Part shown: piece after piece, positions 1 through 54,025 of the stretch
How positions within the stretch are numbered: position 1 is the stretch's first letter
Layout of the letters: every line of letters starts with the position of its first letter
Assembly: GCF_947495665.1 (NCBI RefSeq)
Contig: NZ_CANLZV010000004.1
Span: 248,001-312,000, forward strand
Reading direction: 5' to 3'
From: an uncultured Sunxiuqinia sp.
Lineage (GTDB): Bacteria; Bacteroidota; Bacteroidia; Bacteroidales; Prolixibacteraceae
Length of the DNA stretch: 64,000 nt
Made by a program: the position numbers and the translations under genes
The notes under the pieces: generated by a model
The model's input: only the letters and a program-made list of their open reading frames with translations
The model's database searches: none
Told to the model about the DNA's origin: nothing

Positions 1-3000
1 TGCAGACGCATAAATTGTTCTTATCGAAGGAACTACCGGTGTAAGAAAACTCACTTCCTCGCCATAAGCAATGCCGACACTGTTTTCGGCATAAGCCCGG
101 ATATAATAAACCGTGTTGGGAGCCAGCTTCGTAAGCAGGTCGGTAAAGGAACCGGTAAAGTAACCGGTTGATGCTGTCCGGTTTTTAACAATGGTGTCCG
201 GTTCGAAATTGGGCTGGGTACACCACACCAACCCACGGGTAGTCACCAAAGCCCCTCCGTTGCTGGTAATGGTTCCGCCGCCATTAGCCGACGTTGAGGA
301 CAGCAGCGTAACCGGATCGGTAACAACCGTTGCCAAAACCGGAGGTTCGGTCGTGAAGCTCACTTCTTCGCCATAAGCTATTCCAACGGCATTCACCGCA
401 TAAGCCCGCACATAGTACGTCGTGCTTCCCATCAAGTCGGAGATGGTACTTGTAAAATCACCTGATCCTCCGCCATTCGTCGTATAGTTCTCGTCTTCGC
501 GAACCGGGTTGTGCGAGGTACTCCAGCAAACACCACTTTGCGTAACCGGACTGCCTCCATCTGAAATGATGCTTCCTCCGGCCAAGGCTGACGTGCTGGT
601 CACTGAGCTCTTTTCAATGTCAGTAGTTACTACAACCGGAATGTCTTTCGTGGTGAAACTCAGTTCCTCCTCGGCGTAAGAAGTTCCAATCCCATTCACC
701 ACATACGCCCGAACATAGTAAGTGGTGTTGGGCAATAAACCAGTCATGCGCGAGCTGAAACTTCCTGAAACACTTTCAGTGGTTCGGTTCACCAATACCG
801 TATCCGGAATAAAACCAGACTGGGTGCTCCAAACCAATCCTCCGGAAGTAATCAAAGTTCCTCCATTGCTGATGACCGTTCCACCGCTGGTTCCTTCCAC
901 CCCGTTGAGTTCACTCTTCGGCGTTACTGTTCGTACAATCGCAAATTCCGGAGGGCCGGAAATGAAACGCACCTCATTTCCGTAACTTACTCCAGCCTCA
1001 TTGATGGCATAAGCCCGAACATAGTAGGTGGTGTTGGCCATCAAATTGGTCATGGTATGAATAAATTCACCAATTCCCACTCCTTCGGTGGTCCGAGGAT
1101 TATATATTGTCGGGTTGCCGGTCGTGTTCCAGCAGATACCACTTTGGCTCACCTCCGAACCGCCATCATTACTAATGAAACCGCCACCAACAGCCGAAAC
1201 TCCGCTGATGTCCGACACTTCATTGGTGGTAATCGTGGCCAGAGTTGCGGTAACAAAACTCAACTCATCGCCATAAGCAATACCAATCCGGTTGATGGCG
1301 TAGGCCCTCACATAATAGGTTTCCCCCTTGGTCAACCCTGTAAGCTGCCCCGTAAACGATCCATCTCCGTTGCCACAAACCAGTCGGTTATCATCAATGG
1401 TTGTCATTTTCTCCGTGCTCCAGCAAATACCCCGCTCCGTAATGGGCTCTCCCCCATTATCGGCAATCGTTCCCTGAACAGAAGCTGAAGTTCCCTGAAC
1501 AGAAGTAACTCCATCGGTTACCACCCACGGCACTGTTGAGGTTGTCGTGACCAAACTATCCAGGTTACCGTAGGCCACTCCGGCACTATTGATAGCATAA
1601 GCACGCACGTAATATTTCGTACTTCCACTCAGCCCCGACAGCTGGCTCGAAAAAATACCGACATCTGAACCGTCAATGGTATAGCTGTCTTCCATGGCTG
1701 GATTGGGGAAAGTTGACCAACAAACCCCGCGGCTGGTTATGGTATCGCCACCGTCGCTGGTTATGGTTCCGCCACTTATTGCCCGGCTACTTCTTACATC
1801 CGAAGGTTTGGTTGTAATTAAGGTGGCCAGCTCATCGGTCTTAAACTGGTACGAATCGCCGTAGGCAATCCCCTTTTCATTTATCGCGTAGGCTCTTACA
1901 TAATAAGTTGTTCCCGGAGCCAGGCCAACGAGTTGAGTTGAGAAGCTTCCGGGCCCCATACCTACTTTTACCGTATCATTCAAAATGGTTGGATTATCCG
2001 ATAGGCTCCAGCAAAATCCGCGATCGGTAACATCCCAACCACCGGTGTTATTCACTCTACCCCGGGCTTCTGCATAAACACCGCCAATGTTGATCACATC
2101 AATGGTGACCACCTCCGGAACAGTTGCTTCCGGTGTAATGAAACTGTATTCATCTCCGTAGGACACCCCCGTTACGTTCATGGCATAAGCTCTGACGAAA
2201 TAAGTAGTGTCTGGCAGCAAGCCAGTCAGTGTGCTGCTGAAAGAACCCAGCCCCGTTCCTGTAAAAATATCCGAGAGTTTCGAATCCCGGTCAAAAGTCG
2301 GGTTTTCGGTGGTAGCCCAGCAAACTCCACGTTCAATAATTTCAGAATTTCCGGTATTGGAAACAATCCCGCCACTCTGCGCCGTATTTTGGGTAATATC
2401 GCTTGGCTCAGTGGTAAAGATTGAAGCAACTGACGCCGTAACAAAACTGGTTTCGCTGGTATAGCCGGTTCCTGCTGAGTTGGTAGCATAACCTTTCGCG
2501 TAGTAAGTTGTACCCGGTTCCAGCACAGCCAGTGTACTTTCAAAAATACCCACATCGGACAGGTTGATTGTTCCTGAAGGATAATACTCATAATTTACCC
2601 GGTCGGTACTCAGGCAAATCCCGCGCGCAGTAACTGGTGCTCCGCCGTTATTCAGAATCTCCATCGTTCCCAGTGCTGAGATATCTGTAATTTCAGAAAT
2701 CTGAATTGACGCCGAACTCAACTCCGGCACCACCGGTGGTAAAGAGGTAAACACGATCAGATTTCCATAGGAAGTCCCGGCTTTATTTACCGCATACGCC
2801 CGAACATAAAAAGTAGTGCTTCCCAGCAAGCCGGTCAGGCTACTGGGGAACTCCCCCACTCCTGATCCATCATCTGAAATGGTAGCTTCCGGATCATCCA
2901 GCGGATCACCAACCACGCTCCAGATAATTCCTCGCGCGGTAATCGGATAACCGCCATCGCTGGTGATATCACCTCCACTCTGTGCCGAAATACTGGTGAT

Positions 3001-5700
3001 GTTTGTGGGATCAAGGGTAATAATTTCCGGAGCATCCGGAATAATGGTGAAGGTTTTATTTTCGCCATAACCAACCCCCACCCAACTACGGGCATAGGCA
3101 CGAACGTGGTAAGTAACATTGGGCACCAAGCCGGTCAGGATACTGCTGTAAAGTCCCAGGCCGGTTCCGTCAGTTGTATGATTAGAGAAAATGGTTGGAT
3201 TTTCAGATGTGCTCCAGCAAACGCCGCGCGCTGTTACTTCTTCTCCTCCGGCATCCAAAACATTTCCACCTCCTACAGCAGTTGAGCTCATGAAAGAGGC
3301 AGTTGAAAGCGTAATAACCTGGGGGTAGAATAAGGTGGTCAAACTATCGAGGTTACCGTATGATGTTCCGGCTGCATTGACCGCATAAGCCCTCACATAA
3401 TAAGTAGTACCCGGCAGCAGGTCAGCCATGGCACTGGCAAAAGTTCCGGAGCCGTCGCCTGTAATGGCTTCGCTGGTTTTGCTTGGCAAATCAATGGTCG
3501 GATCTTTTTCTGTACTCCAGCAAATCCCCAAGGCGGTAATTTCCGAGTTTCCGACATCAGTAACGATCCCTCCACTCAATGCCTCGTTGCCGGTCACATT
3601 GGTGGGCTTTACTGTTACAAGCTGAACCAGGGAGGCCGTCACAAAACTGATTTCACTGGTGTAGGCGGTGCCAGCACTGTTGGTGGCATATCCTTTGGCG
3701 TAATAAAGGGTTCCGGGAGTCAGCCCGGTTAGTTGACTAATAAAAATTCCAATGTCTGTCGGGTTCACCGTTTCAGAAGGATAATAATGGTAGGTAATCC
3801 GATCCGTGCTGATACAGATTCCCCGATCAGTTATTGGTGCTCCCCCGTTATTCAGAATTTCCATGCGTCCCACCGCCGAAACATCGGTAATGTCGTACAC
3901 ACTGATATTGGCAGAACTGAGCTCAGCCAAAATTGGGTCAGGGGTTGTAAACTGAATCAGATTTCCATAGGCTGTTCCAGCTTTATTGACCGCATAGGCC
4001 CTCACATAATAAGTGGTGTTTCCAAGCAGGCTGGTCAGCAGACTTGGGAACCGCCCCACCCCCGAGCCATCGTTGGTAATGATGTGGGAAGGATCGTCCA
4101 GCGGATCGCCCTGCACGCTCCAGATAATTCCTCGTGCGGTAACCGGTTTTCCTCCATCGCTGGTAATATCACCCCCACTTTGAGCCGACATGCTGGTGAT
4201 AGCTGTGGCTTCCAGCGTCGTAATTTCAGGAATATCTGTAATGATTGTAAAAGTCTTTTCTTCACCATAGGCAATGCCGACACTGTTGCGTGCATAGGCC
4301 CGTACATAGTAGGTAACATTTTCAGCCAGCCCGGTCAAGTTGCTGGTGAAGTCACCCAACCCGCTTCCGTCAGAAGTATGGTAAGAATAAATCGTTGGAT
4401 TGGCACTTGTACTCCAGCACACGCCACGTTCAACAACTTCTGCGCCCCCATCAGAAATTACGGTTCCTCCGCCAACAGCTGTACTCCCGACAAAAACGGC
4501 CGGCGTCAGTGTTGTCACAACCGGGTAGTCTAAAGTTGTCAGGCTGTCCAGGTTCCCATAGGCTGTTCCGGCGGCATTAACTGCATAAGCGCGAACATAA
4601 TACTTGGTTCCCGGAAGCAGGTCAGTCATCGAACTTGGGAAAGTGCCCAATCCACCCCCGGAAATTGCTTCGCTGGTTTTGGTTGGCAAATCAGTTGTCG
4701 GGTACTTCTCGGTACTCCAGCAAATTCCCCGGGCCGTTATTGCCGAATTCTCCGAACTGGTAATCTCGCCTCCGCTTAAAGCCGTAAAGCCTGTAACATC
4801 GGAAGGTGGAATGGTAGTGATAATTACAGGAAATGCGGTGGTGAAAACAACTTGGTCGCTGTAACCGATTCCGGCTTCATTGGTTGCATACGCTTTCACA
4901 TAATACGTTGTTCCGGGCGACAAAACATCCAGCAAGGTTTGAAAGTCTCCAATTTCAGAACCGGTATCGTGGGTTGAAGGAAAATGGTTAAAGGTCACCC
5001 CATCGGTACTCCAGGCCACCCCGCGCTCGGAAATTTCAGCTCCTCCATTGTTGATAATCGTCGCGTTAATTTGTGCTGAAGTTCCGGTAATGTCATTCAC
5101 CGTGATCAATTTTTCCAGCAAAGGCGGCTCCGGACCAAGGGTGGTAAATTGTACAAGATTGCCATAAGCTGTTCCTTCACTATTGACGGCATAAGCCCGC
5201 ACATAGTAGGTGGTATTCCCCATTAAGTCGTTTAGCAAACTGGCATAAGTGCCAATTCCTGCTCCGTCTTCCGTGCGTAAGGCTTCGCTGTCATTCAGCG
5301 GGTCGCCCACGGCGCTCCAAATAACTCCCCGCAAGCTAACCGGGGCACCGCCGTCATTCATGATGTTTCCACCCGTTTCGGCTGACATGCTGGTAATATT
5401 GGAAGCCTCCAGGGTAATAATCGTAGGAATGGTTGTAGAAGTGGTAAAGGTCAGGTTTTCACCATAAACAACGCCTTCGGCATTCACGGCATAAGCCCGA
5501 ACATGGTAAGTGGTGTTGGGCAACAAGCCGGAAAGGTGACTAACAAAAGCACCCAGACCGTCTCCGGAGGTAATTTTCTGGCGGGTGCGGGTATTCAGGG
5601 TTGTATCGGGGTTGGCACTAAACCCCCAGCAAATTCCGACAACAGAAATGGCCGATCCTCCAGTGCTGGTTACCACACCTCCTCCGGTTCCGGAACCTCC
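1..5700. repeat. 19 tandem ~300-bp units with ~1.2-kb super-period
   Basis: The conserved AYAVN-type codons recur near 5495, 5195, 4895, 4595, 4300, 3995, 3695, 3395, 3100, 2795, 2490, 2185, 1885, 1595, 1295, 1000, 700, 395 and 90. Units four apart are more alike than neighbours. The group near 5195, 3995 and 2795 shares one signature, 4895, 3695 and 2490 a second (an altered AYAKG-type strand), and 5495, 4300 and 3100 a third. This suggests a block of four units was duplicated to give about three copies between roughly 5640 and 2050. Confidence 0.85.
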
Positions 5701-6381
5701 AATCAGGTCGGTAACCGGTGTTGTGGTTACTGCAGCTTCACAGGCTATGTTCAACCATACACTTCCATTGCAATAGCGGAAGGCTTTTTCAGCAATGCTG
5801 ATATACATATCTCCTTCGGCAGCTATTGGCGGGTCTTCGGAAAGCACCGGAAAACAACAGGTTTCAATCATCTCATCGGTGGAGAAGGCCGAGTTGCCCA
5901 AAAGTGTTTCGCCCCCCATATGATTCATTTTCACCCAACCGTTTCCGCCGGAAACCACCAGCGACTGATCGTTTGTGGAATAAAGAAAAGCTCCGGATGA
6001 AGGCGATGAAGGCAGTACCAACTTCTCCGGCAAATACGGAATTCCGTTTTTCACGGTAAAGTAGCTCTGTGCCGTAGCATCTTCATAAACCGCTGAGCAA
6101 AAGTCGACCCAGGCATTTCCGGTATACACCATCGGCTTTTCATCTTGCCGGCTATAAATCAGCATCCCGGTTCCGGGACTCACAATTTTCGCCGTATTGT
6201 CATAAACCGGGAGATGAGGAATGCCCTGTTCTACCCGGAAATAATCCTCTTGTGCGCCAACCAGAGCCGGCACCAACAGAAGAACCATTAAACAAAGCCA
6301 GCCCCAGGCCAGACTCCCTTTCGAGTTTAAAAGATGCATTCTCCGGAATGCACTTGCTGCGTTTTTGCTTTTATTTTCCAT
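1..6381 (-). CDS. Giant repetitive surface protein (3' end beyond window)
   Basis: Partial gene. It begins at the ATG whose first base is 6381 and stays open to base 1, so at least 2127 residues are visible and the C-terminus is missing. Residues 1 to about 43 form a charged leader plus hydrophobic segment ending in VGA-QE, read as a signal peptide. Residues about 45-200 hold two modules with GIPYLP and YTGNAW motifs. From about residue 215 there are 19 fibronectin-like units of about 100 residues, each with a GICWS-type strand and a TYYVRAYAVN strand followed by G-x-x-YG. Such units are common in secreted Bacteroidota proteins. A carbohydrate-binding, adhesin or stalk role is inference. Any type IX sorting domain would lie beyond the window. 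It is the last visible gene of the minus-strand fibre cluster. Confidence 0.85.
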   Translation of the reverse strand, partial: MENKSKNAASAFRRMHLLNSKGSLAWGWLCLMVLLLVPALVGAQEDYFRVEQGIPHLPVYDNTAKIVSPGTGMLIYSRQDEKPMVYTGNAWVDFCSAVYEDATAQSYFTVKNGIPYLPEKLVLPSSPSSGAFLYSTNDQSLVVSGGNGWVKMNHMGGETLLGNSAFSTDEMIETCCFPVLSEDPPIAAEGDMYISIAEKAFRYCNGSVWLNIACEAAVTTTPVTDLIGGSGTGGGVVTSTGGSAISVVGICWGFSANPDTTLNTRTRQKITSGDGLGAFVSHLSGLLPNTTYHVRAYAVNAEGVVYGENLTFTTSTTIPTIITLEASNITSMSAETGGNIMNDGGAPVSLRGVIWSAVGDPLNDSEALRTEDGAGIGTYASLLNDLMGNTTYYVRAYAVNSEGTAYGNLVQFTTLGPEPPLLEKLITVNDITGTSAQINATIINNGGAEISERGVAWSTDGVTFNHFPSTHDTGSEIGDFQTLLDVLSPGTTYYVKAYATNEAGIGYSDQVVFTTAFPVIITTIPPSDVTGFTALSGGEITSSENSAITARGICWSTEKYPTTDLPTKTSEAISGGGLGTFPSSMTDLLPGTKYYVRAYAVNAAGTAYGNLDSLTTLDYPVVTTLTPAVFVGSTAVGGGTVISDGGAEVVERGVCWSTSANPTIYSYHTSDGSGLGDFTSNLTGLAENVTYYVRAYARNSVGIAYGEEKTFTIITDIPEITTLEATAITSMSAQSGGDITSDGGKPVTARGIIWSVQGDPLDDPSHIITNDGSGVGRFPSLLTSLLGNTTYYVRAYAVNKAGTAYGNLIQFTTPDPILAELSSANISVYDITDVSAVGRMEILNNGGAPITDRGICISTDRITYHYYPSETVNPTDIGIFISQLTGLTPGTLYYAKGYATNSAGTAYTSEISFVTASLVQLVTVKPTNVTGNEALSGGIVTDVGNSEITALGICWSTEKDPTIDLPSKTSEAITGDGSGTFASAMADLLPGTTYYVRAYAVNAAGTSYGNLDSLTTLFYPQVITLSTASFMSSTAVGGGNVLDAGGEEVTARGVCWSTSENPTIFSNHTTDGTGLGLYSSILTGLVPNVTYHVRAYARSWVGVGYGENKTFTIIPDAPEIITLDPTNITSISAQSGGDITSDGGYPITARGIIWSVVGDPLDDPEATISDDGSGVGEFPSSLTGLLGSTTFYVRAYAVNKAGTSYGNLIVFTSLPPVVPELSSASIQISEITDISALGTMEILNNGGAPVTARGICLSTDRVNYEYYPSGTINLSDVGIFESTLAVLEPGTTYYAKGYATNSAGTGYTSETSFVTASVASIFTTEPSDITQNTAQSGGIVSNTGNSEIIERGVCWATTENPTFDRDSKLSDIFTGTGLGSFSSTLTGLLPDTTYFVRAYAMNVTGVSYGDEYSFITPEATVPEVVTIDVINIGGVYAEARGRVNNTGGWDVTDRGFCWSLSDNPTILNDTVKVGMGPGSFSTQLVGLAPGTTYYVRAYAINEKGIAYGDSYQFKTDELATLITTKPSDVRSSRAISGGTITSDGGDTITSRGVCWSTFPNPAMEDSYTIDGSDVGIFSSQLSGLSGSTKYYVRAYAINSAGVAYGNLDSLVTTTSTVPWVVTDGVTSVQGTSASVQGTIADNGGEPITERGICWSTEKMTTIDDNRLVCGNGDGSFTGQLTGLTKGETYYVRAYAINRIGIAYGDELSFVTATLATITTNEVSDISGVSAVGGGFISNDGGSEVSQSGICWNTTGNPTIYNPRTTEGVGIGEFIHTMTNLMANTTYYVRAYAINEAGVSYGNEVRFISGPPEFAIVRTVTPKSELNGVEGTSGGTVISNGGTLITSGGLVWSTQSGFIPDTVLVNRTTESVSGSFSSRMTGLLPNTTYYVRAYVVNGIGTSYAEEELSFTTKDIPVVVTTDIEKSSVTSTSALAGGSIISDGGSPVTQSGVCWSTSHNPVREDENYTTNGGGSGDFTSTISDLMGSTTYYVRAYAVNAVGIAYGEEVSFTTEPPVLATVVTDPVTLLSSTSANGGGTITSNGGALVTTRGLVWCTQPNFEPDTIVKNRTASTGYFTGSFTDLLTKLAPNTVYYIRAYAENSVGIAYGEEVSFLTPVVPSIRTIYASA

Positions 6382-6491
6382 GTTTGTTGCTTATTCCACT
6401 TCATTCCTTTGCATGGATGAAGCGCTTACCATATTGTTTTAAAACCCTTTATATTCTTTTTTCGGCCTTCTGAGACGGCCGTATAATCAAA

Positions 6492-6515
6492 GAGTTGACT
6501 AGTATTAGTCAACTC
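6492..6515 (-). terminator. Hairpin between the 133-aa gene and the giant gene
   Basis: GAGTTGACTA and TAGTCAACTC form a perfect 10-bp inverted repeat around a 4-base loop, 27 bases beyond the stop of the upstream minus-strand gene. The following T tract is weak (TTTGATTAT), so it may be a terminator, an attenuating hairpin or a processing site. Confidence 0.45.
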
Positions 6516-6541
6516 ACTGAATTTTATGCTTTTCGCTTTGC

Positions 6542-6943
6542 TCATTCCGAACCTGCGTATTTCACGAACTTTATTCCGTTCTGGTACTTAAATTCCAAAA
6601 ACAAGATGCTTCCCCATAACTTAAGTTCATAATCACTGATGGGGCTTTGGGTGGTGGACAGGTACCATACGGGAGGATTTGCTTCCCCTGAACATGATGT
6701 CACATGGTATTGCTCCTTCAGCCTTTGAAACACTTCATCTGAATAGGTTACCCGGATTTGCCGGGCATGATCGGAGGTACTGCATTCGATTAAAAAAGGA
6801 AAGTGCTCGAAATGCCGGATCAGCCACATGGCGCTTTTATTGTAGGAGCAATAATTAGCTCCATCTTTATAAACTTCAAGCATTTCGGGGGTGATTTCCG
6901 AAGCGGTTGTTGTCTGTAATTCAACAAAAGAAAAGTCTTTCAT
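6542..6943 (-). CDS. Hypothetical protein, 133 aa, inside the fibre cluster
   Basis: I do not recognise the family. The protein has no signal peptide and no membrane segment, so it should be cytoplasmic, unlike every other product of this cluster. It is rich in aromatic residues (Trp at three positions, many Tyr and Phe) and has two cysteines, suggesting a compact globular fold. It starts at ATG 6943 with no clear ribosome binding site, as is normal for this phylum. It lies 112 bases after the S74 fibre gene and is followed by a hairpin. It could be a regulator, a chaperone or an unrelated insertion; the sequence does not say which. Confidence 0.6.
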   Translation of the reverse strand: MKDFSFVELQTTTASEITPEMLEVYKDGANYCSYNKSAMWLIRHFEHFPFLIECSTSDHARQIRVTYSDEVFQRLKEQYHVTSCSGEANPPVWYLSTTQSPISDYELKLWGSILFLEFKYQNGIKFVKYAGSE

Positions 6944-7055
6944 ATCACAAGTTTGCTGTCATCCTATTCTGTTCCCTTATTCCAAGCTGTCCGAAATACC
7001 AGGCACTTACCCTTAAACCTGAATGAAAAATGAAAGGCCTTTGACATCCAGCCGC

Positions 7056-10943: not shown

Positions 10944-11035
10944 CGGTTAATCTTTTCAATCAAGATTTCATCGCTTTTTCGTCCACCATAGTCCCCGTCC
11001 TAAATTCAGCAGAATAATCTTAAGTCGTTAAAACA

Positions 11036-14000
11036 TTAAAAGTTAATTACAATGGACACACCTGGTCCATTTCCTGGTGTACCTCCCACACCATCTCCAA
11101 AACCGGGAGAAAAAATCTGCTGACCAAGAACCCCATCTCCAATATCATAGACCATAACATAACCAATATCCACTCGATAATAAACAGGGGTGTCTACAGT
11201 ACCATCAGGCAGAGAATTACTCAAAACCATTAGGGTCAGCTGCGGCAACATGAATGAGGAACTTGAATTATTCATGGTCTTATCGATATCTATAATTTTA
11301 AGTGCGAAAGTTTCGCTCTGCAACTGACTCAACACATCGGATGAAGTCACGTTAATCTGAAATGACTCCAGTTGGGTTCCTGTGGGGATCGTGATTACAA
11401 AACCTGCAGTAGTAGGACTTGCAGTCGCACTTACCTCACAGGAAATCAGATTTAAATCACCAAAACCTCTGGCCATAAATGAAAATCCGGGCTCAATCAC
11501 GCCCTCATAAATCTGTGGAGCCCCTCCACCTGAAGACGAAGCTGTTTTCCAAGTAGCTCCTGTTCCTGAGGCATTAGCCGTTAGTACTTTGTTGGCATCT
11601 GCCGCCCCGGCTAACGGAGCAATTTTATCCAGTTTGTCTTTATCGATGGCCGGCATAACTCCTGCATTTGTTGCAGTAGCTGCTGGTAAAGTGGCATCAT
11701 TCCCCGAGCTGCTCTCAACCGTTACTGTTGAAGCATCGGTAGTGTAAGAAAGATCAGTAACACTGCTTCCCTGCCAGGTAAAGCCCCCTGCTCCATTAGA
11801 AGTCAGTGATTGTCCGCTCGTGCCATTACCGGCAATGCCTGCAAGTTTCATGGCGGTGATTGCCTGGTTGGCCACATCTTCGGCCACAATGGTTCCGTTG
11901 GCAATTTTATCCGAGGTAACCGCATCTGCTGCCAGTTGTGTTGAAATGGTTCCCGATCCTGAACCGGTCACATCTCCTGTCAAACTAATGGATGAACCAC
12001 TTCCTCCGGCAGTCCATTCAGTGCCATTTCCGGCACTATTGATGGTTAATACTTTATTGGCATCTGCCGCCGTGTAACCAGGTACTTTAGTATCGACATA
12101 TGTTTTTACAGCTTGCTGCGTCGGAAAAAGAACATCTGAATTTGATGCCAAGGAGCCATCAGTACTTTTATTCGCGGTGTCTTCCTTGCCTTGCACGGTG
12201 GCGTTGGCACTTACCCGAGCATCTGTAAAATACAAGTTAGTTCCTTCCGCAACCATGGTGGTGGTATAATCACCAGTCTGAGGAGTGACTGCCCCTGTTC
12301 TGCCGTTAAAAGAACCAACTTCACTTCCTTTTGAAATTTGTGACCAGCTGCTACCATCCGACAACACCCAATCACCTACATCCAGTGTTAACCCATAGAT
12401 ATTATTTTCTCCAGCTTCAGAAGCAATGTAATAATAGCCCTTGCTTGAGGTAGGATCAGGCAATGCAGGCGTATTGGTCATGGCATCGTACGCTCCCTGA
12501 AAGAAAACATCTCCAACAATTGATGCAGGCAGATAGGCTTCATCAATTTGTCCACTGACATTCAGAGGAACGACTCCATTCGGGATTCCTTTTTCAGATA
12601 AATTGATTTTAGTATCCAAAGCACTTTGTGTAGCTGTGCTAATGGGTTTATTCAAATCGCTGGTGTTATCCACCAGATTCAAATTCATATTGGTTTTCAG
12701 GCTGGCTAAATCACTCACTCCTGTACCTCCGTTTGCTACGGGCAACACACCGGTCAAATTAGCAACAGACACATTTCCGTTGATATTTCCAGAAGTTGTG
12801 ATATCACCGGTAGTCGTAATACTGCCCGCTGAAATGCTACCGGTTGTAATTGAATTTGGCGTAATGTCTCCCAGGCTAAGCGTTATTTCAGGAGTTGTTG
12901 ACGCGTTGGCAACAGTCCCGCTAACACCATTGGCAGGTACCACCGACACATTGGTCACTGTTCCTGTTCCTCCACCCACGGCAGAAAGAACACCATCACC
13001 ATCAATGGTCAGGTTCGAACCAACTTTAATCCCTCCCAGGCTTGTTCCTGAAGCCTTGGGTAAAGAATAAGTAAAATTATTTGCCCCCGCTTCTATGCCA
13101 TCCAACTTCGCTTTGTCTTCAGCAGAAATAAGTCCCGGACTAGTCGGAGATGCTTCAGGAATGGCTGTTGTTATCGATCGATTTACCCATTTTGACCCTG
13201 TCGCATTCCATTGCAAGATATCGTTGTTGGTTTTTCCCGAAATTGATACATTGGATAAACCATCAATAGCATGGTTGTGTGAACTGCTAACATTGGCTGA
13301 TAGAATACCATCCACATCAATGGAAAGATTGGCTCCAATCCGAACACCTCCCACTTGGTCAACTGTTGCCACAGGCAAAGTGGGCGAAGCAGCTTCTGTC
13401 CACTCCACTCCTGTTTCATCTGCTTTTACTGCCAGCACTTTGCCACTATTTCCGGTTTTTACTGGCAACAACGCATTGATAGCCGATTCGGCATCAGTGG
13501 CTCCGGTACCTCCATGTGTTACCGGAATAGCTGTGCCGTTCCAGGTTCCGGAAGTAATTGTGCCTACTGTTGTCAGGTTGGTTGAACCTGTCCAGTTTGA
13601 AAGAGCGACATTCTCTACCTGACTTAAGTCCAGAATAGATTTCACAGCCGTTGCATCCAAAGCAGTTGGGGCAGCCGAAGCTCCCGAATTATTTCCAAGT
13701 AGCGTTTTGTTTGCAATAGCCGCCAGTTCCAACGTAATTTCACCGGAAGCACCACCTCCGGAAAGTCCGCTTCCTGCCGTGATTCCTGTAACATCTCCTC
13801 CGCCAATGGAAGAAAGATCAACAGTGCTACCTGTTCCTGAAATCGTTAAATTGTTGCCGGACAAACTCAAGGTCTGATCACCGGTGTTGGTTCCCGACAA
13901 GTTTGATCCGCTTACTGTTCCCGAAGCATCAACCGATGTAGGCGTCAACGCTCCGTCAATTGTTCCATCAACATAGTTTTTAGTGGCCGCATCGGTCAGA

Positions 14001-17000
14001 GCCAATGGCTCAGCAAGGTTGGTAATCCGCTGACTTCCCAGATCGAGGGCAGCCGCAGCTGCTCCAAAGCCACTCAAAGGAATTATATTTTTTGAGGTTG
14101 CCTCAGCCTTTCCTGCGGCATTTCCAACATAAAACTGTCCCAGCCCCAAGGATAAGCTTGAAGGATCGGCTGCTATCCCATCTGAAATATCCATCCATGA
14201 AAACGTGCCATCACCATTGGACTGGAGCACGCTGCCCGAGGAACCATTTTCCAGTGCAATGCTACCAGACCCCTTTAAGCCGCCAGCACCAATTGCGTTC
14301 GGTGCAATTTTCAGCGGACTCAAAGCCGTTCCGTTACCACTTAGCGTTTCATCGTGCGCAACCTCAGCAAGCACCTCCGTTTTCAGCGCATAAAGACTTA
14401 AGTCCTGATCGCCTGTATTCACATTACTTGTATTAGCCAGAATAGCCAGCTGCGCATCGGTAACATAACGCTTATCTGTTGATGATGCAATATCAGCTGT
14501 TGTCGCATCTTCACCGGCAGTTACCATGCCATTGGCATCGTATGTAATTTTTGTTTTAGTGGCACCAACAATGGCCGGATTTTTATCCAGCTTATTGTCC
14601 AAAGCTGTTTGAGTAGCTGTACTCACCGGCTTATCCATGTCGCTGGTGTTATCGACATTTGACAAACCGACATCAGCCTTTGTAATTCCTACCGGCGAAT
14701 TGATCACCGGGCTATCCAAGGTTTTATTCGTAAGGGTTTGTGTAGCCGTTTCACCAACCAGCTGCTCCAGAATTCCTTTTGCATCATAAACTGTTTTCAG
14801 CATATCGCCGCCACCAGCCGAGGCAATATTGTCATCCACATATTTTTTCGTTGCAGGCTCATAATCAGCCGAGGGCGTAAAAGCCGTGGTATTATTCAGA
14901 GTCAATACTTCAGTCTTCTTCGCATAGCCCGATAAATCCTGATCACCAGTATTGGTGCCACTGGTATTAGCAAGTGTCGCCAACTGCGCATCGGTCACAT
15001 AGCGTTTATCTGTTGATGAAGCAATATCAGCTGTTGTAGCATCCTCTCCTGCAGTTACCAAACCATTGGCATCGTAGGTAATCTTCGTTTTGGTAGCTCC
15101 AATAATGGCCGAATTCTTATCCAGCTTGCTGTCTAAAGCCGTTTGTGTAGCATTACTTACCGGCTTATTCAAGTCACTGGTATTATCAACCTGTCCCAAT
15201 CCTACATCGGCTTTACTTAGTTCCAGCATCGATTTGATAACTGTAGACGACAAAGCAACCGGGGTAGCCGAAGCGCCCGAGCTATTTCCCAGAATTGTTT
15301 TATCACCAACGGGCGCAAGACCTACTGTTAAATCTCCCGAAGCCCCTCCGCCGGTCAAGCCATTTTCAGTCGTTACAGAAGTAATGCTTCCGCCACCGCC
15401 CAAACCAGACAGGTCAACCGTATTGCCACCGGAAATACTTAAATTGGTTCCGCTGAGGCTCAGGCTTTGATCGCCTGAATTGGTTCCACTCATGTTGGTA
15501 ATCAGATTCAACTGTGTATCTGTCACATACCTTCTGTCCGTCGATGGAGCGATATCAGCCGTTGTGGCATCGGCCCCGGCAATCACCAAACCGTTATTAT
15601 CGTAAGTTATCTTAGTTTTTGTGTCTCCGGTAATAGCCGGATTTTTATCCAGTTTACCATCCAATGCCGTTTGAGTGGCATTGCTTATGGGTTTATTCAA
15701 ATCACTGGTGTTGTCCACCTGGTCCAGCCCCACATCAGCCTTTGCCAAAGCCAGCATTGACTTAACAACTGTCGAAGACAAAGGAACCGGAACGGCCGAA
15801 GCACCCGAGTTATTTCCTAAAATTGTTTGGTCACCAACCGAGGCTAGTCCTATGGTTAAATCTCCGGAAGCACCCCCACCGGTCAAGCCATTTTCGGTCG
15901 TTACAGAAGTAATGCTTCCGCCACCGCCCAAAGCAGACAGGTCAACCGTATTGCCATTCAATATACTTAAATTTGTTCCGGACAGAATCAGGCTTTGATC
16001 ACCCGTGTTGGTTCCGCTGATTCCATCAAGCTTCCCTTTATCCGAAGCGCTTAATAAACCATCATCCGTGGTTGTTGCACCGGGTATTGAGTTCAGCTGA
16101 TTATCCACATACTGCTTGGTGGCTGCATCAGTCGCATTGGCAGGAACCGCAAGATTCGTCAGGGTATGCCCTCCCATGGAAATGTTGCTGACCGGGGCAC
16201 CAAAACCACTTAACGGAATGGCACTTTTGCTGGTTGCCTCGGCTTTTCCTGCCGCATTACCAACATAGAACAAACCATTTCCCAAGGTCAAATCAGAAGG
16301 ATTAACCGACACGCCTGATGAGATGTCTTTCCAGGAAAAAGAACCATCGCCATTTGACTGCAGCACATGCCCATAAATGCCCGGCGACAGAGAACCGCCA
16401 CTTCCCTTGAGGCTTGAAGCCCCTACGGCACCGGAGGACAAGCCCAACGGGTTGGAATAAGTTCCATCGCCATGCAAGGTATTGTCATGAACAACATTGC
16501 TCAAGCCGCCATCGCCATTATTCAAAATAGCCGCTAAGTCAACATGACTTCCACGCGGACCTGAAATGGAAATAATCGTCCCATTCAAACTTAAAGATTG
16601 GTACAAATTAGCCAGGCTAATGGTGTTTCCTTCAGAGATTGTCAAATCCTGGTTCCCATCCAAGCTTAAGGTTTGCGGTTTGATGTACCGCTGCACCTGA
16701 CCATCCACGTATTCTTTATTTGCCGCATCCCGGTTTTCCGAAGGATTCGACAAATCAGTCATTCGGTAGCCCCCCATCGAAACATTGGATTGGGCATAGC
16801 CAAAACCACTCAAGGGAATATTACTTTTTTTGGTTGAAGTAGCCTTCCCCGAATCGTTACCAATGAAAAACTGACCGGAAGGAAGCGTAAGTTCAGAGGC
16901 ATCAACCGGCACTCCCTGAGAAAGATCCTTCCAGGAGAATGTTCCGTCGCCATTTGATTGCAAAACATTGCCCGGAGTTCCAGGAGTTAAAACAGTCCCT

Positions 17001-17839
17001 TGCCCTTTCAGGTTTGAAGTACCCACTGCACGACTGGCTAGCCCTAAGGGGTTTGAGCCAGAGCCATCGCCTTGTAATGAAGAATCGTGAATGACAGGCT
17101 TATCGTCTTCACTTAAAGCATTCTTCAGGTCAACCTGGCTTTGGGCGACACCCGAAATTGACAGGATAGTTCCATCCAAGCTCAGTGTTTGTGATTCCTG
17201 AGCTGCTTCATCAACATATTTCTTGGTTGCCGCATCTGATGCATCTACCGGGTCGGCCAGCTGGCTAATCCGGTTTCCGTCCATCAATAAATTCGTTTGA
17301 GCCGAGCCAAAATCCGTAAGCGGAATTGCGGTTTTGTCCACGCCTTTGGCTGTTCCGTCTACGCCTACCAACACCTGCCCATCTTCTAAACGAAGACCGC
17401 CATCCTCTGTTGGAAGGTTGTTGCCCACAGCAAGCCATTTACCATTGCTGTAGATCAGCAAATTATCATCCGAAGTGTTAAAAAACAACTGCCCTTCAGC
17501 AACATTGCCCGTCGGATTAGTTGTTCCAAGTTGAATGGCTGACAATTCACTTGAAATGGTATTCCAGCCAAGGCCACTCCAGAAATAGAACTGATTTTCC
17601 TGGCTATCGAACACCAACAGGCCTTTCGCCGACGAATCGTTTCCATTAAACATTCTTAAGCGCTGATCCGTGGTCAAGCGGGGAATTAGAAGTCCTTTGC
17701 TTTCGGAATATAATTCAAGAATTGCCTTTGAATTCGCAGGAACATTCCCTTTACCAATACTGACCCCTCCATCCTGAGCATTAACGCCCATGCATGTAAG
17801 TTGCAATATAACAATCAGCAAAACGTAAACATTTCTCAT
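11036..17839 (-). CDS. Giant secreted tail-fibre-like repeat protein, 2267 aa
   Basis: Residues 1-21 are a signal peptide (VLLIVILQLTCMGVNA-QD). Residues about 25-140 hold the Bacteroidota module with KGLLIPRLTTDQR and GLLVF-x-S-x-x-x-FYFW. The body is a mosaic of fibre motifs: DAATKKYVD repeats like those of the neighbouring S74 protein, KADVGLGQVDNTSDLNKP units, GSGTNTGDQ-type units, and one GTWNGTAIPVTHGGTG unit, all well known from phage tail fibres. Unlike its neighbour it has no S74 domain. The last 160 residues (from about 2105) form a non-repetitive beta-rich domain I do not recognise, ending in VSIVINF. No type IX sorting domain is visible, so the route beyond the periplasm is unknown. 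It lies 92 bases upstream of the S74 fibre gene. I infer a structural or adhesive fibre. Confidence 0.82.
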   Translation of the reverse strand: MRNVYVLLIVILQLTCMGVNAQDGGVSIGKGNVPANSKAILELYSESKGLLIPRLTTDQRLRMFNGNDSSAKGLLVFDSQENQFYFWSGLGWNTISSELSAIQLGTTNPTGNVAEGQLFFNTSDDNLLIYSNGKWLAVGNNLPTEDGGLRLEDGQVLVGVDGTAKGVDKTAIPLTDFGSAQTNLLMDGNRISQLADPVDASDAATKKYVDEAAQESQTLSLDGTILSISGVAQSQVDLKNALSEDDKPVIHDSSLQGDGSGSNPLGLASRAVGTSNLKGQGTVLTPGTPGNVLQSNGDGTFSWKDLSQGVPVDASELTLPSGQFFIGNDSGKATSTKKSNIPLSGFGYAQSNVSMGGYRMTDLSNPSENRDAANKEYVDGQVQRYIKPQTLSLDGNQDLTISEGNTISLANLYQSLSLNGTIISISGPRGSHVDLAAILNNGDGGLSNVVHDNTLHGDGTYSNPLGLSSGAVGASSLKGSGGSLSPGIYGHVLQSNGDGSFSWKDISSGVSVNPSDLTLGNGLFYVGNAAGKAEATSKSAIPLSGFGAPVSNISMGGHTLTNLAVPANATDAATKQYVDNQLNSIPGATTTDDGLLSASDKGKLDGISGTNTGDQSLILSGTNLSILNGNTVDLSALGGGGSITSVTTENGLTGGGASGDLTIGLASVGDQTILGNNSGASAVPVPLSSTVVKSMLALAKADVGLDQVDNTSDLNKPISNATQTALDGKLDKNPAITGDTKTKITYDNNGLVIAGADATTADIAPSTDRRYVTDTQLNLITNMSGTNSGDQSLSLSGTNLSISGGNTVDLSGLGGGGSITSVTTENGLTGGGASGDLTVGLAPVGDKTILGNSSGASATPVALSSTVIKSMLELSKADVGLGQVDNTSDLNKPVSNATQTALDSKLDKNSAIIGATKTKITYDANGLVTAGEDATTADIASSTDKRYVTDAQLATLANTSGTNTGDQDLSGYAKKTEVLTLNNTTAFTPSADYEPATKKYVDDNIASAGGGDMLKTVYDAKGILEQLVGETATQTLTNKTLDSPVINSPVGITKADVGLSNVDNTSDMDKPVSTATQTALDNKLDKNPAIVGATKTKITYDANGMVTAGEDATTADIASSTDKRYVTDAQLAILANTSNVNTGDQDLSLYALKTEVLAEVAHDETLSGNGTALSPLKIAPNAIGAGGLKGSGSIALENGSSGSVLQSNGDGTFSWMDISDGIAADPSSLSLGLGQFYVGNAAGKAEATSKNIIPLSGFGAAAAALDLGSQRITNLAEPLALTDAATKNYVDGTIDGALTPTSVDASGTVSGSNLSGTNTGDQTLSLSGNNLTISGTGSTVDLSSIGGGDVTGITAGSGLSGGGASGEITLELAAIANKTLLGNNSGASAAPTALDATAVKSILDLSQVENVALSNWTGSTNLTTVGTITSGTWNGTAIPVTHGGTGATDAESAINALLPVKTGNSGKVLAVKADETGVEWTEAASPTLPVATVDQVGGVRIGANLSIDVDGILSANVSSSHNHAIDGLSNVSISGKTNNDILQWNATGSKWVNRSITTAIPEASPTSPGLISAEDKAKLDGIEAGANNFTYSLPKASGTSLGGIKVGSNLTIDGDGVLSAVGGGTGTVTNVSVVPANGVSGTVANASTTPEITLSLGDITPNSITTGSISAGSITTTGDITTSGNINGNVSVANLTGVLPVANGGTGVSDLASLKTNMNLNLVDNTSDLNKPISTATQSALDTKINLSEKGIPNGVVPLNVSGQIDEAYLPASIVGDVFFQGAYDAMTNTPALPDPTSSKGYYYIASEAGENNIYGLTLDVGDWVLSDGSSWSQISKGSEVGSFNGRTGAVTPQTGDYTTTMVAEGTNLYFTDARVSANATVQGKEDTANKSTDGSLASNSDVLFPTQQAVKTYVDTKVPGYTAADANKVLTINSAGNGTEWTAGGSGSSISLTGDVTGSGSGTISTQLAADAVTSDKIANGTIVAEDVANQAITAMKLAGIAGNGTSGQSLTSNGAGGFTWQGSSVTDLSYTTDASTVTVESSSGNDATLPAATATNAGVMPAIDKDKLDKIAPLAGAADANKVLTANASGTGATWKTASSSGGGAPQIYEGVIEPGFSFMARGFGDLNLISCEVSATASPTTAGFVITIPTGTQLESFQINVTSSDVLSQLQSETFALKIIDIDKTMNNSSSSFMLPQLTLMVLSNSLPDGTVDTPVYYRVDIGYVMVYDIGDGVLGQQIFSPGFGDGVGGTPGNGPGVSIVINF
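14400..16030 (-). repeat. Tandem ~530-bp blocks within the 2267-aa fibre gene
   Basis: Near-identical stretches lie at about 15360-15480 and 15890-16010 (encoding VTTENGLTGGGASGDLT and a Gly-rich GLGGGGSIT turn). The KTKITYD, ATTADIA and RYVTDAQL segment recurs near 15550, 15010 and 14470. Two full blocks plus a shorter third one are present, spaced about 530-540 bp. Confidence 0.7.
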
Positions 17840-17950
17840 AAGCCTATCTAATTATCTTTTAATTTTCTGCACAAACACTTCTATTTCAAAAATTTACTTT
17901 CATTCCAAACGTCTGGATAAACCACACAATTTCAAGCACTAAGGCAACTG

Positions 17951-18949
17951 CTACCGGTATAGGTTATTCCGGTTGACTACCTCGCCTATCCGGTGCCGAA
18001 CAGCAGCTTTCCGCTGATAATTATACAGCACCGCTTTTTGACTGAAACTATAGGAAAGGTTCAGCCCGTGTGAACTGAACTGATTAACTCCTTTTCCAAC
18101 ACCATATTCGTAAGTATATCCCACCATCAGGTTTTTATTGACTTTTAGTGATAATGAAGTCGTTAAAGCCATATTCAAACGATAACTCAGGCCTGCCCAA
18201 ATCCGATCTTTGAATAAAAAGTTGACCGCCAGGTCGAAGACCGGAGCCGCATAGCCATTGGAAACCTCTCCTTCATTCACCTGCTGAGTAGCCCCCCGGT
18301 AGTACTTGACCACCAGATCGGGCCGGAAAAGAACATCCCGGTTGATTTGATACATGGCTCCCAGGATCAGGTCCCAACTGGGATAAATAACCAGTTCCTC
18401 ATTCCAGGTTTTATCAACAAGCATGTTGGCACTCAGCCCGGCAAACATAAAGTCGTTCATATAAAAGGCCCCCAACTTAGTTGTAAACCGATCGGTTCCC
18501 CATATTTCATGATCCAGCAGGTATTCATCATCATAAGAGGTTATGATGTCCTCGGTGCGGTAAGAAGTACTTTTTATACCGATGCCGTAACCAAAAGCCA
18601 AAAAGCCTTTAGGCGAAACTTTTACATTGCTCGACAAGCTAAGATCAAGCGAGTTGATTTTTCGGAGACCGATGTTTTCGCGCATCAAGGTTGCATTAAG
18701 GCCAAGACGTTTGAAACGAAAAGGGATGTAAACGTTGGTTCCAAAAACCTCGGGATGATAAGGCAAGCTCACCCATTGAAGCCGGCTGATCAGGTTGATC
18801 GAAATATAATCCTTGAAGGAATTATAGGCCGGATTAATGAACTCCTGCTTAACAACCGATTGCAAATGCATCATTTCCTGGGCGGTCGATTGCTGACTTT
18901 GCACAAGCAGCATCAGGCCTAAAACCATGTATCGAATTTTCCGGATCAT
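17951..18949 (-). CDS. PorP/SprF family outer-membrane protein
   Basis: 332 residues with a signal peptide (MVLGLMLLVQSQQSTAQ). The family hallmark FINPAYNSF follows the mature N-terminus, and the rest alternates as outer-membrane beta strands with basic and aromatic turns. In Flavobacterium, SprF-type proteins are needed for secretion and surface placement of a partner with a type-B C-terminal domain, and they often sit beside that partner. Here the start overlaps the stop of exactly such a gene in an ATGA junction (18946-18949), implying translational coupling. This is a second, locus-specific PorP/SprF, distinct from the core copy at 49089-50033. It probably serves the upstream cargo and perhaps anchors the fibres encoded downstream (inference). 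Confidence 0.88.
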   Translation of the reverse strand: MIRKIRYMVLGLMLLVQSQQSTAQEMMHLQSVVKQEFINPAYNSFKDYISINLISRLQWVSLPYHPEVFGTNVYIPFRFKRLGLNATLMRENIGLRKINSLDLSLSSNVKVSPKGFLAFGYGIGIKSTSYRTEDIITSYDDEYLLDHEIWGTDRFTTKLGAFYMNDFMFAGLSANMLVDKTWNEELVIYPSWDLILGAMYQINRDVLFRPDLVVKYYRGATQQVNEGEVSNGYAAPVFDLAVNFLFKDRIWAGLSYRLNMALTTSLSLKVNKNLMVGYTYEYGVGKGVNQFSSHGLNLSYSFSQKAVLYNYQRKAAVRHRIGEVVNRNNLYR

Positions 18950-20139
18950 TTGCTGCTTTTTACTTCAACCACATTTCGAACAACGAAAGGGGAATCTCCC
19001 GTCCACAAGGTCATTTGATAGTAGTAGGTTCCTGGGGTATAATGAGCAAAATCCAAGTCATTCTGATAGTTCTGATTTTTGTACACCATGGCTCCCCAGC
19101 GGTTGTAAACCTCCAGTTCAATTTGAGAATACCTGGAAATATTGGGTACTTCAAAAACAGAATAAGACATCCCGTCAAGAAGAATGAAATTGACCAGTTC
19201 CAAAACAGAAGCACAGGCCTGGCCATAAAAGCCGGATGAGTTTTTGGTGTTACCCAGCAAGTAGAAATCATTAACCCGCCGCGACTCATAATCAATCGAA
19301 TAATCCTTGAAAAGAAAATCATCGGCTCGGGCGTAAAGCATGCTGTAGTCGTCAACTCCTAAGATATTTTGAAACGCATCGAACATGGATTGCCCAACAA
19401 TAAACCTGTTCTGGGTAGAGCTTTCAGAGAACACCTGCCATCCCCAAGGCTCAATCTTGCGCACATTCGGATCATTAATCATACTTGCCGCATCGGCAAA
19501 AAGAGCTCCGTCAAACAACACATCAACCGTTCCGCCGTTTTTCACATCGCTGATAAACAACGGATGAAAAGCATAGTCATCACCTACCGGAAACCAGTAC
19601 GTATCGCCAGGTAATACTTCACGAATCAATTTCCCATCGACATAACTGGCATTGGTAGCCGAATTGGAGAAAATCACGGCATCGGCAGCTGCATTAACTA
19701 TTTTAAATAAACTTTCATTCGAAACATGGACCACTCCCGAAGTCAGAGCGAGTGAGTTATGAATAAACAGATCACCATTCAGAAAAACGTCTCCTTCTGG
19801 CTTATCCATTCTAAACGATCCTAAGCTGGAACCAAATCCGTCAAGATCAATATCGGAATTGCCTGCAAAGACAAAGCTGCCATCGCCCAGGTGCTTACCT
19901 GAAAAAGTAACCGTAGCCGGAGAGGTCGCATGAAAATAAACCGTTCCTTGGTTTGTAAGGCTGGCTGTTTCATCCAGAAGCACATCGCCGTCAAAGCAAA
20001 TTGAGCTTTCTTCAGCCACATAGAGATCCAACTCCTGAATCTTCACACCCCCCTTTTCTTCATTCAAATCCCCGGTATCTGCATAAACGCCAATGGTTAG
20101 CACAAGCAGTCCAGCGAGTAAAAAATTAAACAATCGCAT
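18946..20139 (-). CDS. Type IX secretion cargo with type-B gliding C-terminal domain
   Basis: 397 residues. Residues 1-20 are a signal peptide. Residues about 35-290 form a beta-rich passenger with SGVVHVSNESLFKI and a YVDGKLIREV...WFPVGDD segment, a pattern frequent in Bacteroidota surface proteins. The last 85 residues match the gliding-motility-associated (type B) sorting domain: FEVPNIS, EVYNRWGAMVYKN, then TPGTYYYQMTL and a final VVEVKSSK. This domain directs export through the type IX machine in partnership with SprF-like proteins. It is the first gene of the cluster and overlaps the SprF-like gene. The passenger's ligand is not evident. Confidence 0.88.
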   Translation of the reverse strand: MRLFNFLLAGLLVLTIGVYADTGDLNEEKGGVKIQELDLYVAEESSICFDGDVLLDETASLTNQGTVYFHATSPATVTFSGKHLGDGSFVFAGNSDIDLDGFGSSLGSFRMDKPEGDVFLNGDLFIHNSLALTSGVVHVSNESLFKIVNAAADAVIFSNSATNASYVDGKLIREVLPGDTYWFPVGDDYAFHPLFISDVKNGGTVDVLFDGALFADAASMINDPNVRKIEPWGWQVFSESSTQNRFIVGQSMFDAFQNILGVDDYSMLYARADDFLFKDYSIDYESRRVNDFYLLGNTKNSSGFYGQACASVLELVNFILLDGMSYSVFEVPNISRYSQIELEVYNRWGAMVYKNQNYQNDLDFAHYTPGTYYYQMTLWTGDSPFVVRNVVEVKSSK

Positions 20140-48982: not shown

Positions 48983-49088
48983 TCTCTTATTTCGTTGAAA
49001 AATTTGGTAGCGCGTCGAATAGAAACATCTGAAAGAATTATTATTTTCACTTACTTTGGCTCAGAATAACGGCAGTAACAGCCAGTTT

Positions 49089-50033: not shown

Positions 50034-50042
50034 GCTAATCTT

Positions 50043-51401: not shown

Positions 51402-51424
51402 TCAAACCTTAATTCTGAAAAAAA

Positions 51425-52396: not shown

Positions 52397-52418
52397 AAAC
52401 CGATAAGCTCACTAGCAT

Positions 52419-54023: not shown

Positions 54024-54025
54024 AC

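What the first reader, a model, noticed from the sequence alone, without database searches (positions are those of the whole stretch)
1..20139. Candidate surface-fibre system: type-B cargo, SprF partner, two tail-fibre-like giants and a fibronectin-like giant
Six co-directional genes combine a type IX cargo with a type-B sorting domain, its SprF-like partner (ATGA-coupled), two Sec-exported proteins built from phage-tail-fibre repeats, an orphan cytoplasmic protein and a giant repeat protein. The families are each known; I know of no described system with this combination. Only one visible product carries a type IX signal, so the fibres may be held by the SprF/cargo pair. That is inference.
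Basis: partly seen in the sequence, partly recalled or inferred. Interest (0 to 1): 0.75.

Follow-up and report, generated by a model that had tools for sequence, protein, structure and literature searches.

The report
Island-borne surface-fibre module beside secretion shuttle
A Bacteroidota genome carries a block of genes, inserted at one exact spot, that pairs a known outer-membrane anchoring pair with giant phage-tail-like and lectin-tipped proteins; the core of the set recurs in a few relatives, so it is probably a transferable kit for building sticky surface fibres.

Summary
Six minus-strand genes (cargo, SprF, fibre1, S74 fibre, orphan, giant) are followed, off-window, by a thioredoxin-like and a LytTR gene. 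The giant, completed off-window, has 5573 aa: Fn3-like repeats, then eight FISUMP domains, no T9SS sorting domain. The block is a ~33 kb insertion: five congeneric genomes have the flanks adjacent, and a short direct repeat marks both ends in the two genomes that carry it here. Cargo-SprF-fibre1 recurs at seven loci in six genomes (an eighth is cut by its contig end). In 140 family genomes the six best fibre1 N-terminal matches are exactly the six cargo loci. Fibre1's first ~100 residues are conserved (44-74% in 21 of 21 pairs); its far end mostly is not: fixed base, exchangeable tip, as in phage fibres. The T9SS core porPKLMN lies in the window. SprF lacks the CxC tail used for gliding. Best reading: a static adhesion appendage whose fibres dock on the cargo-SprF pair. 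Docking, outer-membrane crossing and adhesion are inferred, not shown. It is a new variant of the known type-B cargo/shuttle operon.

The parts
18946..20139 (-). Type-B T9SS cargo, 397 aa: signal-like N-terminus (by eye), predicted mostly-strand body, C-terminal CHU_C sorting domain (about 19006-19158)
   Evidence: PF13585 43.3 bits over cut-off 27; AlphaFold2 model mean pLDDT 81.5, pTM 0.71; no PDB fold match at E<=0.001
17951..18949 (-). PorP/SprF-family outer-membrane shuttle, ATGA-overlapped with the cargo; no cysteine at all, so no CxC track-linking tail
   Evidence: TIGR03519 120.8 bits over 90.55; cysteine count and tails; overlap
11036..17839 (-). Fibre1, 2267 aa, signal-like N-terminus (by eye), phage-tail-fibre repeats, no T9SS sorting domain; its last 150 residues are strongly alike only in G006 among the module loci compared
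   Evidence: PHROG tail-fibre/minor-tail profiles; no CTD in Pfam/NCBIfam; pairwise comparison
17540..17839 (-). Conserved N-terminal ~100 residues of fibre1 (GGVSIGKG..PA....ILEL.S.SKG.L.PR.T), proposed base/docking region
   Evidence: Alignment A5; family-wide search; leave-one-out; residues 22-30 predicted with pLDDT<50
7056..10943 (-). S74 fibre, 1295 aa, tail-fibre repeats and C-terminal Peptidase_S74 chaperone domain (about 7236-7403) followed by a coiled-coil-like end (by eye)
   Evidence: PF13884 51.2 bits over 22; PHROG tail fibre profiles; PDB relatives 8jov and 7dc3 at E 0.00035 and 0.00059
6542..6943 (-). Orphan 133-aa protein without a signal-like segment (by eye), function unknown
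   Evidence: No family; relatives in 2 of 60 other genomes searched, one of them (G008) in a region without the cluster
1..6381 (-). 5' part of the 5573-aa giant (Fn3-like repeats); the gene continues off-window to G000:C4:237660 and ends in 8 FISUMP domains
20520..20537 (-). Right-end copy of the direct repeat CAGGATGGAAACAAATTC (4 bases before, and the start of, the SpoU-like methyltransferase gene) that flanks the island; the other copy lies off-window at the intact gene
6492..6515 (.). 10-bp perfect inverted repeat with 4-base loop between orphan and giant; possible terminator, so the giant may be a separate transcript
   Evidence: the same gap of G006 holds a different, loop-less palindrome (GAAAGAGCTCTTTC, read by eye), so this stem is not conserved
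49056..54880 (+). T9SS core genes porP-porK-porL-porM-porN of the same genome (not part of the island)
   Evidence: TIGR03519, TIGR03525, TIGR03513, TIGR03517, TIGR03523 all over cut-off

Best explanation
The block is a site-specifically inserted gene island encoding a static, surface-anchored adhesion appendage. Inferred working: the cargo is Sec-exported, leaves through the T9SS and stays clamped by its sorting domain to its own SprF shuttle in the outer membrane (as others showed for PG1035-PorP and SprB-SprF). Fibre1, made without a sorting domain, docks by its conserved N-terminus on this cargo-SprF platform and projects a variable distal part. The S74 fibre trimerises with its chaperone domain. 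The giant forms a long Fn3-like shaft ending in eight cysteine-rich FISUMP (C-type-lectin-like, recalled) domains that would bind a ligand, folded with the help of the neighbouring thioredoxin-like protein. A LytTR protein may regulate the set. Shown here: gene content, insertion, conservation, linkage, absence of recognised sorting domains and of the gliding cysteines. Not shown: surface location, docking, how fibres cross the outer membrane, what they bind.
For: Cargo-SprF-fibre1 is seen in 7 of 8 loci found; the 8th contig (L054) ends inside SprF; fibre1 is the next gene in 6 of the 7, one gene away in G290 C71. Cargo profile: 5 of 140 family genomes, 6 loci; fibre1 N-term profile: the same 6 loci at 136-163 bits, next best 80; leave-one-out 87-122 bits against at most 68 for the generic fibres. 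In 247 genomes of the order only G250 besides the own one has an SprF near this clade (326 bits; next 115). N-terminus conserved in 21 of 21 pairs; last 150 residues strongly alike in 1 of 15 informative pairs. A protein matching the giant and a thioredoxin-like gene accompany the set in G000, G006, G290 C6 and G312, and probably G001 on another contig. Four conserved Cys in 16 of 16 FISUMP repeats of two giants; CSHC motif in the thioredoxin-like protein. T9SS core present. No CxC tail in 7 of 7 full-length module SprFs, against a gliding role; one relative has an OmpA+LysM protein between SprF and fibre1, like the PorE-type wall anchors described in PMC9143113 and PMC12618676 (passages).
Against: None of the giant proteins has a recognised T9SS sorting signal, so their way out is unexplained. 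No interaction, localisation or expression data. A weaker form of the fibre1 N-terminus occurs in fibres elsewhere: 32 of 140 genomes match at E<=1e-5, 27 of them without a cargo match, and none of 25 such loci has SprF or cargo in its short flanks, so the domain as such does not need the pair. No match to the giant or the thioredoxin-like protein was seen in about 18 kb past fibre1 in G250 or about 29 kb in G290 C71. SprF tails are not conserved between loci.
Confidence: 0.5

Rival explanations
1. The island is a bundle of separate surface adhesins inherited together: cargo-SprF is one adhesin, while fibres and giant reach the surface or medium by an unrelated route and do not touch the cargo-SprF pair.
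For: No sorting signal in the fibres; related fibre N-termini occur away from the pair; downstream content varies between loci.
Against: Fibre1 with the strong form of the N-terminus sits beside this cargo-SprF clade in 7 of 7 readable loci, most at different genomic places; 28 of 28 other SprF loci of the order show no such fibre in the flank held (about 1.4 kb; about 0.2 kb in L077).
Confidence: 0.3
2. The fibres are direct T9SS substrates with an unrecognised signal (an N-terminal or type-C-like one), exported independently of the cargo; the cargo is only a co-inherited adhesin.
For: TANFOR proteins, mostly with a signal peptide and found beside T9SS genes, were hypothesised to be T9SS substrates (PMC7073777, passages); the conserved segment of fibre1 is N-terminal.
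Against: C-termini of fibre1 are mostly not alike between loci, so a shared C-terminal signal is unlikely; no case of N-terminal T9SS targeting is known to me (recall).
Confidence: 0.12
3. A gliding-adhesin system like SprB-SprF, moving on the GldK track.
For: Same cargo-SprF gene pair logic; giant repeat protein; T9SS core present.
Against: The CxC tail that links SprF to GldK (PMC12635249, passages) is absent from 7 of 7 full-length module SprFs and from 7 of 7 SprFs of this genome, the module one counted in both.
Confidence: 0.05
4. A prophage or contractile-injection remnant whose tail fibres were mistaken for cell-surface proteins.
For: PHROG tail-fibre profiles hit fibre1 and the S74 protein.
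Against: Signal-like N-termini (by eye); no capsid, sheath, tube, terminase or integrase recognised on reading the long ORFs of the island; shuttle and, in most loci, giant-like and thioredoxin-like partners recur with the fibre.
Confidence: 0.02

Closest known systems
SprB-SprF of Flavobacterium johnsoniae (type-B gliding adhesin and its shuttle)
   Same: Type-B cargo gene directly followed by its own PorP/SprF-family gene; T9SS-dependent surface anchoring (PMC12618676, PMC9143113, passages).
   Different: No CxC C-tail in SprF; here the giants are separate proteins without a recognised sorting domain, and the cargo is small (397 aa). SprC and SprD of that operon could not be compared (paper not held).
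PorE-PorP-PG1035 complex of Porphyromonas gingivalis and PorE-containing operons of F. johnsoniae
   Same: Anchoring of a small type-B protein by a PorP-like barrel; one relative (G290 C71) has an OmpA+LysM protein next to SprF.
   Different: No PorE-like gene in the window island; fibre1 takes the third position.
TANFOR polymorphic toxins beside T9SS substrates (PMC7073777, outline and passages)
   Same: Large proteins, mostly with a signal peptide, with constant N-terminus and changing C-terminus, encoded near T9SS cargo.
   Different: No TANFOR hit in fibre1, S74 fibre or the 3' part of the giant; distal parts are fibre and FISUMP domains, no toxin or immunity gene recognised.
Grappling-hook protein GhpA of Aureispira (ixotrophy)
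   Same: A T9SS-secreted protein forming heptameric hooks that catch prey (PMC11205867, passage); very large size is recalled and implied by residue numbers in PDB titles.
   Different: No sequence match of the 3' part of the giant to any PDB chain at E<=0.001; GhpA appeared in the fold search of the cargo only as a weak match (E 0.37).
Phage tail fibres with Peptidase_S74 chaperone
   Same: Repeat type and chaperone domain; constant base and variable tip.
   Different: Signal-like N-termini and a secretion shuttle beside them; no virion genes recognised.

Membership tests
Type-B T9SS substrate | C-terminal CHU_C / Bac_Flav_CTERM sorting domain | tested here: met
   PF13585 43.3 bits over cut-off 27; TIGR04131 only 21.7 bits, under its cut-off of 35: met by Pfam, not by NCBIfam
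Type-B T9SS substrate | Own PorP/SprF gene directly downstream | tested here: met
   ATGA overlap; TIGR03519 over cut-off
Type-B T9SS substrate | Host has the T9SS core | tested here: met
   porP-K-L-M-N at window 49056-54880; translocon SprA was not searched
Type-B T9SS substrate | Sec signal peptide | not tested
   Read by eye only; no predictor was used
Track-linked gliding adhesin/shuttle (SprB-SprF) | Cys-X-Cys in the SprF C-tail | tested here: not met
   0 of 7 full-length module SprFs; 0 of 7 SprFs of the own genome
PorE-anchored static type-B complex | PorE-like peptidoglycan-binding gene beside the shuttle | tested here: not met
   None recognised in the window island; an OmpA+LysM gene beside SprF in 1 of 7 module loci
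Trimeric phage-like fibre with S74 chaperone | Peptidase_S74 domain with SDxRLK motif (motif recalled) | tested here: met
   PF13884 over cut-off; motif visible in 4 of 4 module S74 ends printed; trimer and self-cleavage not tested
TANFOR polymorphic toxin | N-terminal TANFOR domain | tested here: not met
   No such NCBIfam hit in fibre1, S74 fibre or the 3' part of the giant; the 5' part of the giant was not run against NCBIfam
Prophage / contractile injection system | Virion or tail-tube/sheath genes beside the fibres | tested here: not met
   None recognised on reading the long ORFs of the island and its flanks; PHROGs run on 6 proteins only
Diversity-generating retroelement target | Codon positions 1-2 vary, position 3 constant | tested here: not met
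   Third positions vary most (36 and 37 of 39 columns) between FISUMP repeats, 7 of 8 repeats of each giant compared; a reverse transcriptase was not searched for
Integrative genomic island | Direct repeats at both ends and single copy in empty sites | tested here: met
   18 bp (own) and 23 bp (G006) identical repeats; single copy in 5 of 5 empty sites; no integrase recognised in the island

The most novel reading that the evidence does not exclude
A two-part T9SS appendage: fibre proteins with no sorting signal of their own are captured in trans, through a conserved N-terminal segment, by a dedicated type-B cargo-SprF pair that carries or holds them at the surface, so that tips can be exchanged freely as in phage fibres. 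It would be a further use of SprF shuttles, beside gliding and PorE-type static anchoring, and it travels as a site-specific island.
Probability: 0.3. Interest if true: 0.85.

Novelty: new variant of a known kind. Interest (0 to 1): 0.6.

Why it matters
Type-B cargo/SprF pairs are common in Bacteroidota; the passages I read propose movement on the gliding track or static (PorE-type) anchoring for them. A recurring partner with a conserved base and changing tip suggests that shuttles can also serve as mounts for separate fibres, and asks a clear question: how do giant exported proteins without a sorting domain reach the surface? TANFOR toxins raise the same puzzle. Sunxiuqinia elliptica CGMCC 1.9156, a named strain, carries the set, so it can be tested.

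Tried and rejected
Rejected: a hidden sorting domain at the end of the giant (it ends in FISUMP repeats). Rejected: diversity-generating retroelement target. Rejected: gliding role. Rejected: foreign base composition as a sign of transfer (the six window genes 43-50% GC, window 45%). Not useful: promoter scans. The Bacteroidota-type -7 pattern (recalled consensus) is no commoner than in shuffles (54 found, 54 expected), though one copy lies 106 bp before the cargo; sigma-70-type sites were at chance level (22 against 23.1) and terminator-like sites a little above it (21 against 14.2, sd 4.0). Led nowhere: PDB sequence searches with SprF, fibre1 and the 3' part of the giant; fold search of the cargo model (nothing at E<=0.001). 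Flanking repeats at other module loci: none of 16 bp or more in G290 C6, G312 and G290 C71; two AT-rich 16-mers in G250, taken as chance (1 of 20 shuffles of another locus gave one); G001's and L054's module loci were not examined. The class-wide cargo search found only the own genome in 395. The structure of the fibre1 N-terminus is weak (mean pLDDT 73.7, pTM 0.51) and is used only to say that the invariant stretch is not confidently folded alone. The SprF tree of 42 sequences puts the 8 module SprFs together (support 0.983) next to one very long branch (L077) that may be a wrong ORF; G001 pairs with G250 (1.000) though they belong to different families, which suggests transfer, or misbinning, since both are metagenome bins.
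Full report
What is there. The window is G000:C4:248001-312000 of a 4.73 Mb draft genome. The congener G006 has a contig of the same length as, and the same locus as, the record Sunxiuqinia elliptica CGMCC 1.9156, so the host is taken to be a Sunxiuqinia (Prolixibacteraceae; inference). The cargo has a CHU_C domain over Pfam's cut-off but under NCBI's for TIGR04131. Its gene overlaps sprF by ATGA. Fibre1 (2267 aa) and the S74 fibre (1295 aa) match phage tail-fibre profiles. The giant runs off the window; with the own-genome stretch it has 5573 residues and no internal stop. It carries Fn3-like repeats, then eight FISUMP domains about 308 residues apart, and ends on the last of them without a sorting domain. 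Two more genes follow off-window: a thioredoxin-like protein with a CSHC motif and a LytTR protein. Signal peptides were read by eye.

It is an island. In G001-G005, five of the six other genomes that the tool calls the same genus, the SpoU-like methyltransferase gene and the lipoprotein gene at window 20587 stand side by side with no ORF of 100 aa or more between. In G000 and G006 the whole set lies between them. Both ends carry the first bases of the methyltransferase gene: 18 identical bp in G000 and 23 in G006, while the five empty sites have one copy. This is what site-specific insertion leaves. No integrase was recognised among its ORFs. Island proteins of G000 and G006 are 45-70% identical; the nearest flanking genes range from 71 to 90%, and some further flanks are as low as 45%, so divergence alone proves little.

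It recurs. Cargo-SprF followed by fibre1 is seen in G000, G006, G001, G250, G290 (two loci) and G312, seven loci; an eighth (L054, a Marinifilaceae bin) ends inside SprF. Fibre1 is the next gene in six; in G290 C71 one gene lies between, an OmpA+LysM protein. In G006 the order is cargo, SprF, fibre1, fibre2, a 634-aa protein, a 356-aa S74 protein, orphan, giant, thioredoxin-like, LytTR. G290 C6 and G312 have proteins that match the FISUMP part of the giant (BLAST E 1e-14 to 1e-10; Pfam's FISUMP model at 26 bits, under its cut-off of 33.9, in the G312 protein tested) and thioredoxin-like genes. G001 has, on another contig, an S74 end, a protein with Ig-type repeats that matches the giant (37% over 188 residues; no FISUMP call by Pfam) and a thioredoxin-like gene; joining that contig to the cargo contig is inference. 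G250 has cargo, SprF and a 3179-aa fibre with S74, and no match to the giant or the thioredoxin-like protein in about 18 kb beyond; G290 C71 none in about 29 kb. LytTR genes lie in or near the set in G000, G006 and G290 C6. The orphan is not tied to the set: G008 has one without it.

Linkage test. In 140 genomes of the family the cargo profile matches 5 genomes and 6 loci at E<=1e-25; in 395 genomes drawn from the class only G000 itself at E<=1e-20. In 247 genomes of the order an SprF profile finds one other close SprF, that of G250 (326 bits; next 115). A profile of the first 100 residues of fibre1 matches 32 of the 140 family genomes at E<=1e-5, but its six best matches (136-163 bits) are exactly the six cargo loci, with the next at 80 bits. 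Because those sequences built the profile, each was left out in turn: they still score 87-122 bits against at most 68 for the best of 25 generic loci. As a control, 28 SprF loci of the order outside this clade show no such fibre in the flank held (about 1.4 kb, about 0.2 kb in L077); 18 of the 28 have a cargo-like sorting domain beside them.

Base and tip. Residues 22-100 of fibre1 are 44-74% identical in 21 of 21 pairs of loci. Beyond residue 110 the G000-G006 pair is alike throughout (53% over 1218), other pairs share only local, repeat-type stretches or nothing. The last 150 residues are strongly alike only in the G000-G006 pair (1 of 15 pairs, after setting aside the 6 pairs with G001, whose gene is cut by its contig end); three of the other fourteen showed weak or marginal matches. 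Conserved base and changing tip is how phage fibres are built (general knowledge). The invariant stretch GVSIGKG (residues 25-31) lies in or next to residues predicted with low confidence (22-30 below 50), as expected of a segment that folds on a partner, though a weak model can look the same.

How it may work. The T9SS core porP-K-L-M-N is in this very window. Others showed that type-B cargo binds its PorP/SprF shuttle for surface anchoring (PMC9143113 and PMC12618676, passages read), that SprF of F. johnsoniae is tied to the gliding track by a CxC tail (PMC12635249, outline and passages), and proposed that static ones are held by PorE. Here no SprF with a readable tail has CxC (0 of 7 in the modules, 0 of 7 in the own genome), and one relative has a PorE-like neighbour. 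So a static mount is the better reading. That fibre1 docks on it is inferred from linkage and from the constant base. The thioredoxin-like protein is a likely helper for the four conserved cysteines in each of 16 of 16 FISUMP repeats in two giants. How proteins without a sorting domain cross the outer membrane is open; the TANFOR toxins pose the same question (PMC7073777, outline and passages).

Other evidence. The cargo model is fairly confident (mean pLDDT 81.5) and mostly strand but has no close PDB fold. The FISUMP binding segment differs between the two species and looks homogenised within each; third codon positions vary most, so it is not a diversity-generating retroelement target.

Is it in print? 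Searches of CC-licensed PMC papers for T9SS, SprF or PorP with tail fibre, S74, FISUMP or partner-export terms returned no description of this set in the listings; only listings were read except for the papers named here. Subscription papers and preprints were not searchable, and the sprC/sprD operon paper was not held, so a resemblance of SprC or SprD to these fibres cannot be excluded.

Verdict. The mechanism rests on genomic inference.

Noticed in passing
window 21479-23878 (-): A polyphosphate-kinase-like gene (by eye) whose C-terminus reads like an ArsC/Spx-type domain (MRIYHNPRCSKSRAGLKYLEENGY...); G006's homologue has 800 aa. Seen in the translation, not searched.
   Followed up: no
G000:C4 giant (L008 7660-18000) and G006 giant (L045-L046): The FISUMP repeats of each species resemble each other in the putative binding segment more than the counterparts in the other species (by eye), suggesting gene conversion.
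   Followed up: partly
window 50043-51398 (+): GldK also matches EgtB/SenA-type families, and the giant's FISUMP part gave a weak EgtB hit, so ring protein and lectin-like tips may share a fold class.
   Followed up: no
L104 7496-9649 (G290 C71): OmpA+LysM protein between SprF and fibre1: a possible peptidoglycan anchor inside the module.
   Followed up: partly
L049/L053 and L052: SprF of two metagenome bins from different families (PL24a_bin.47 = G001, PL25a_bin.72 = G250) are sisters in the tree, and each fibre1 N-terminus is the other's best match (69%): transfer or misbinning.
   Followed up: partly
L106-L107 (G290 C6), between fibre1 and the FISUMP-like protein: Proteins of 239, 321 and 1165 aa with signal-like starts, the last fibre-like, otherwise of unknown function.
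   Followed up: no
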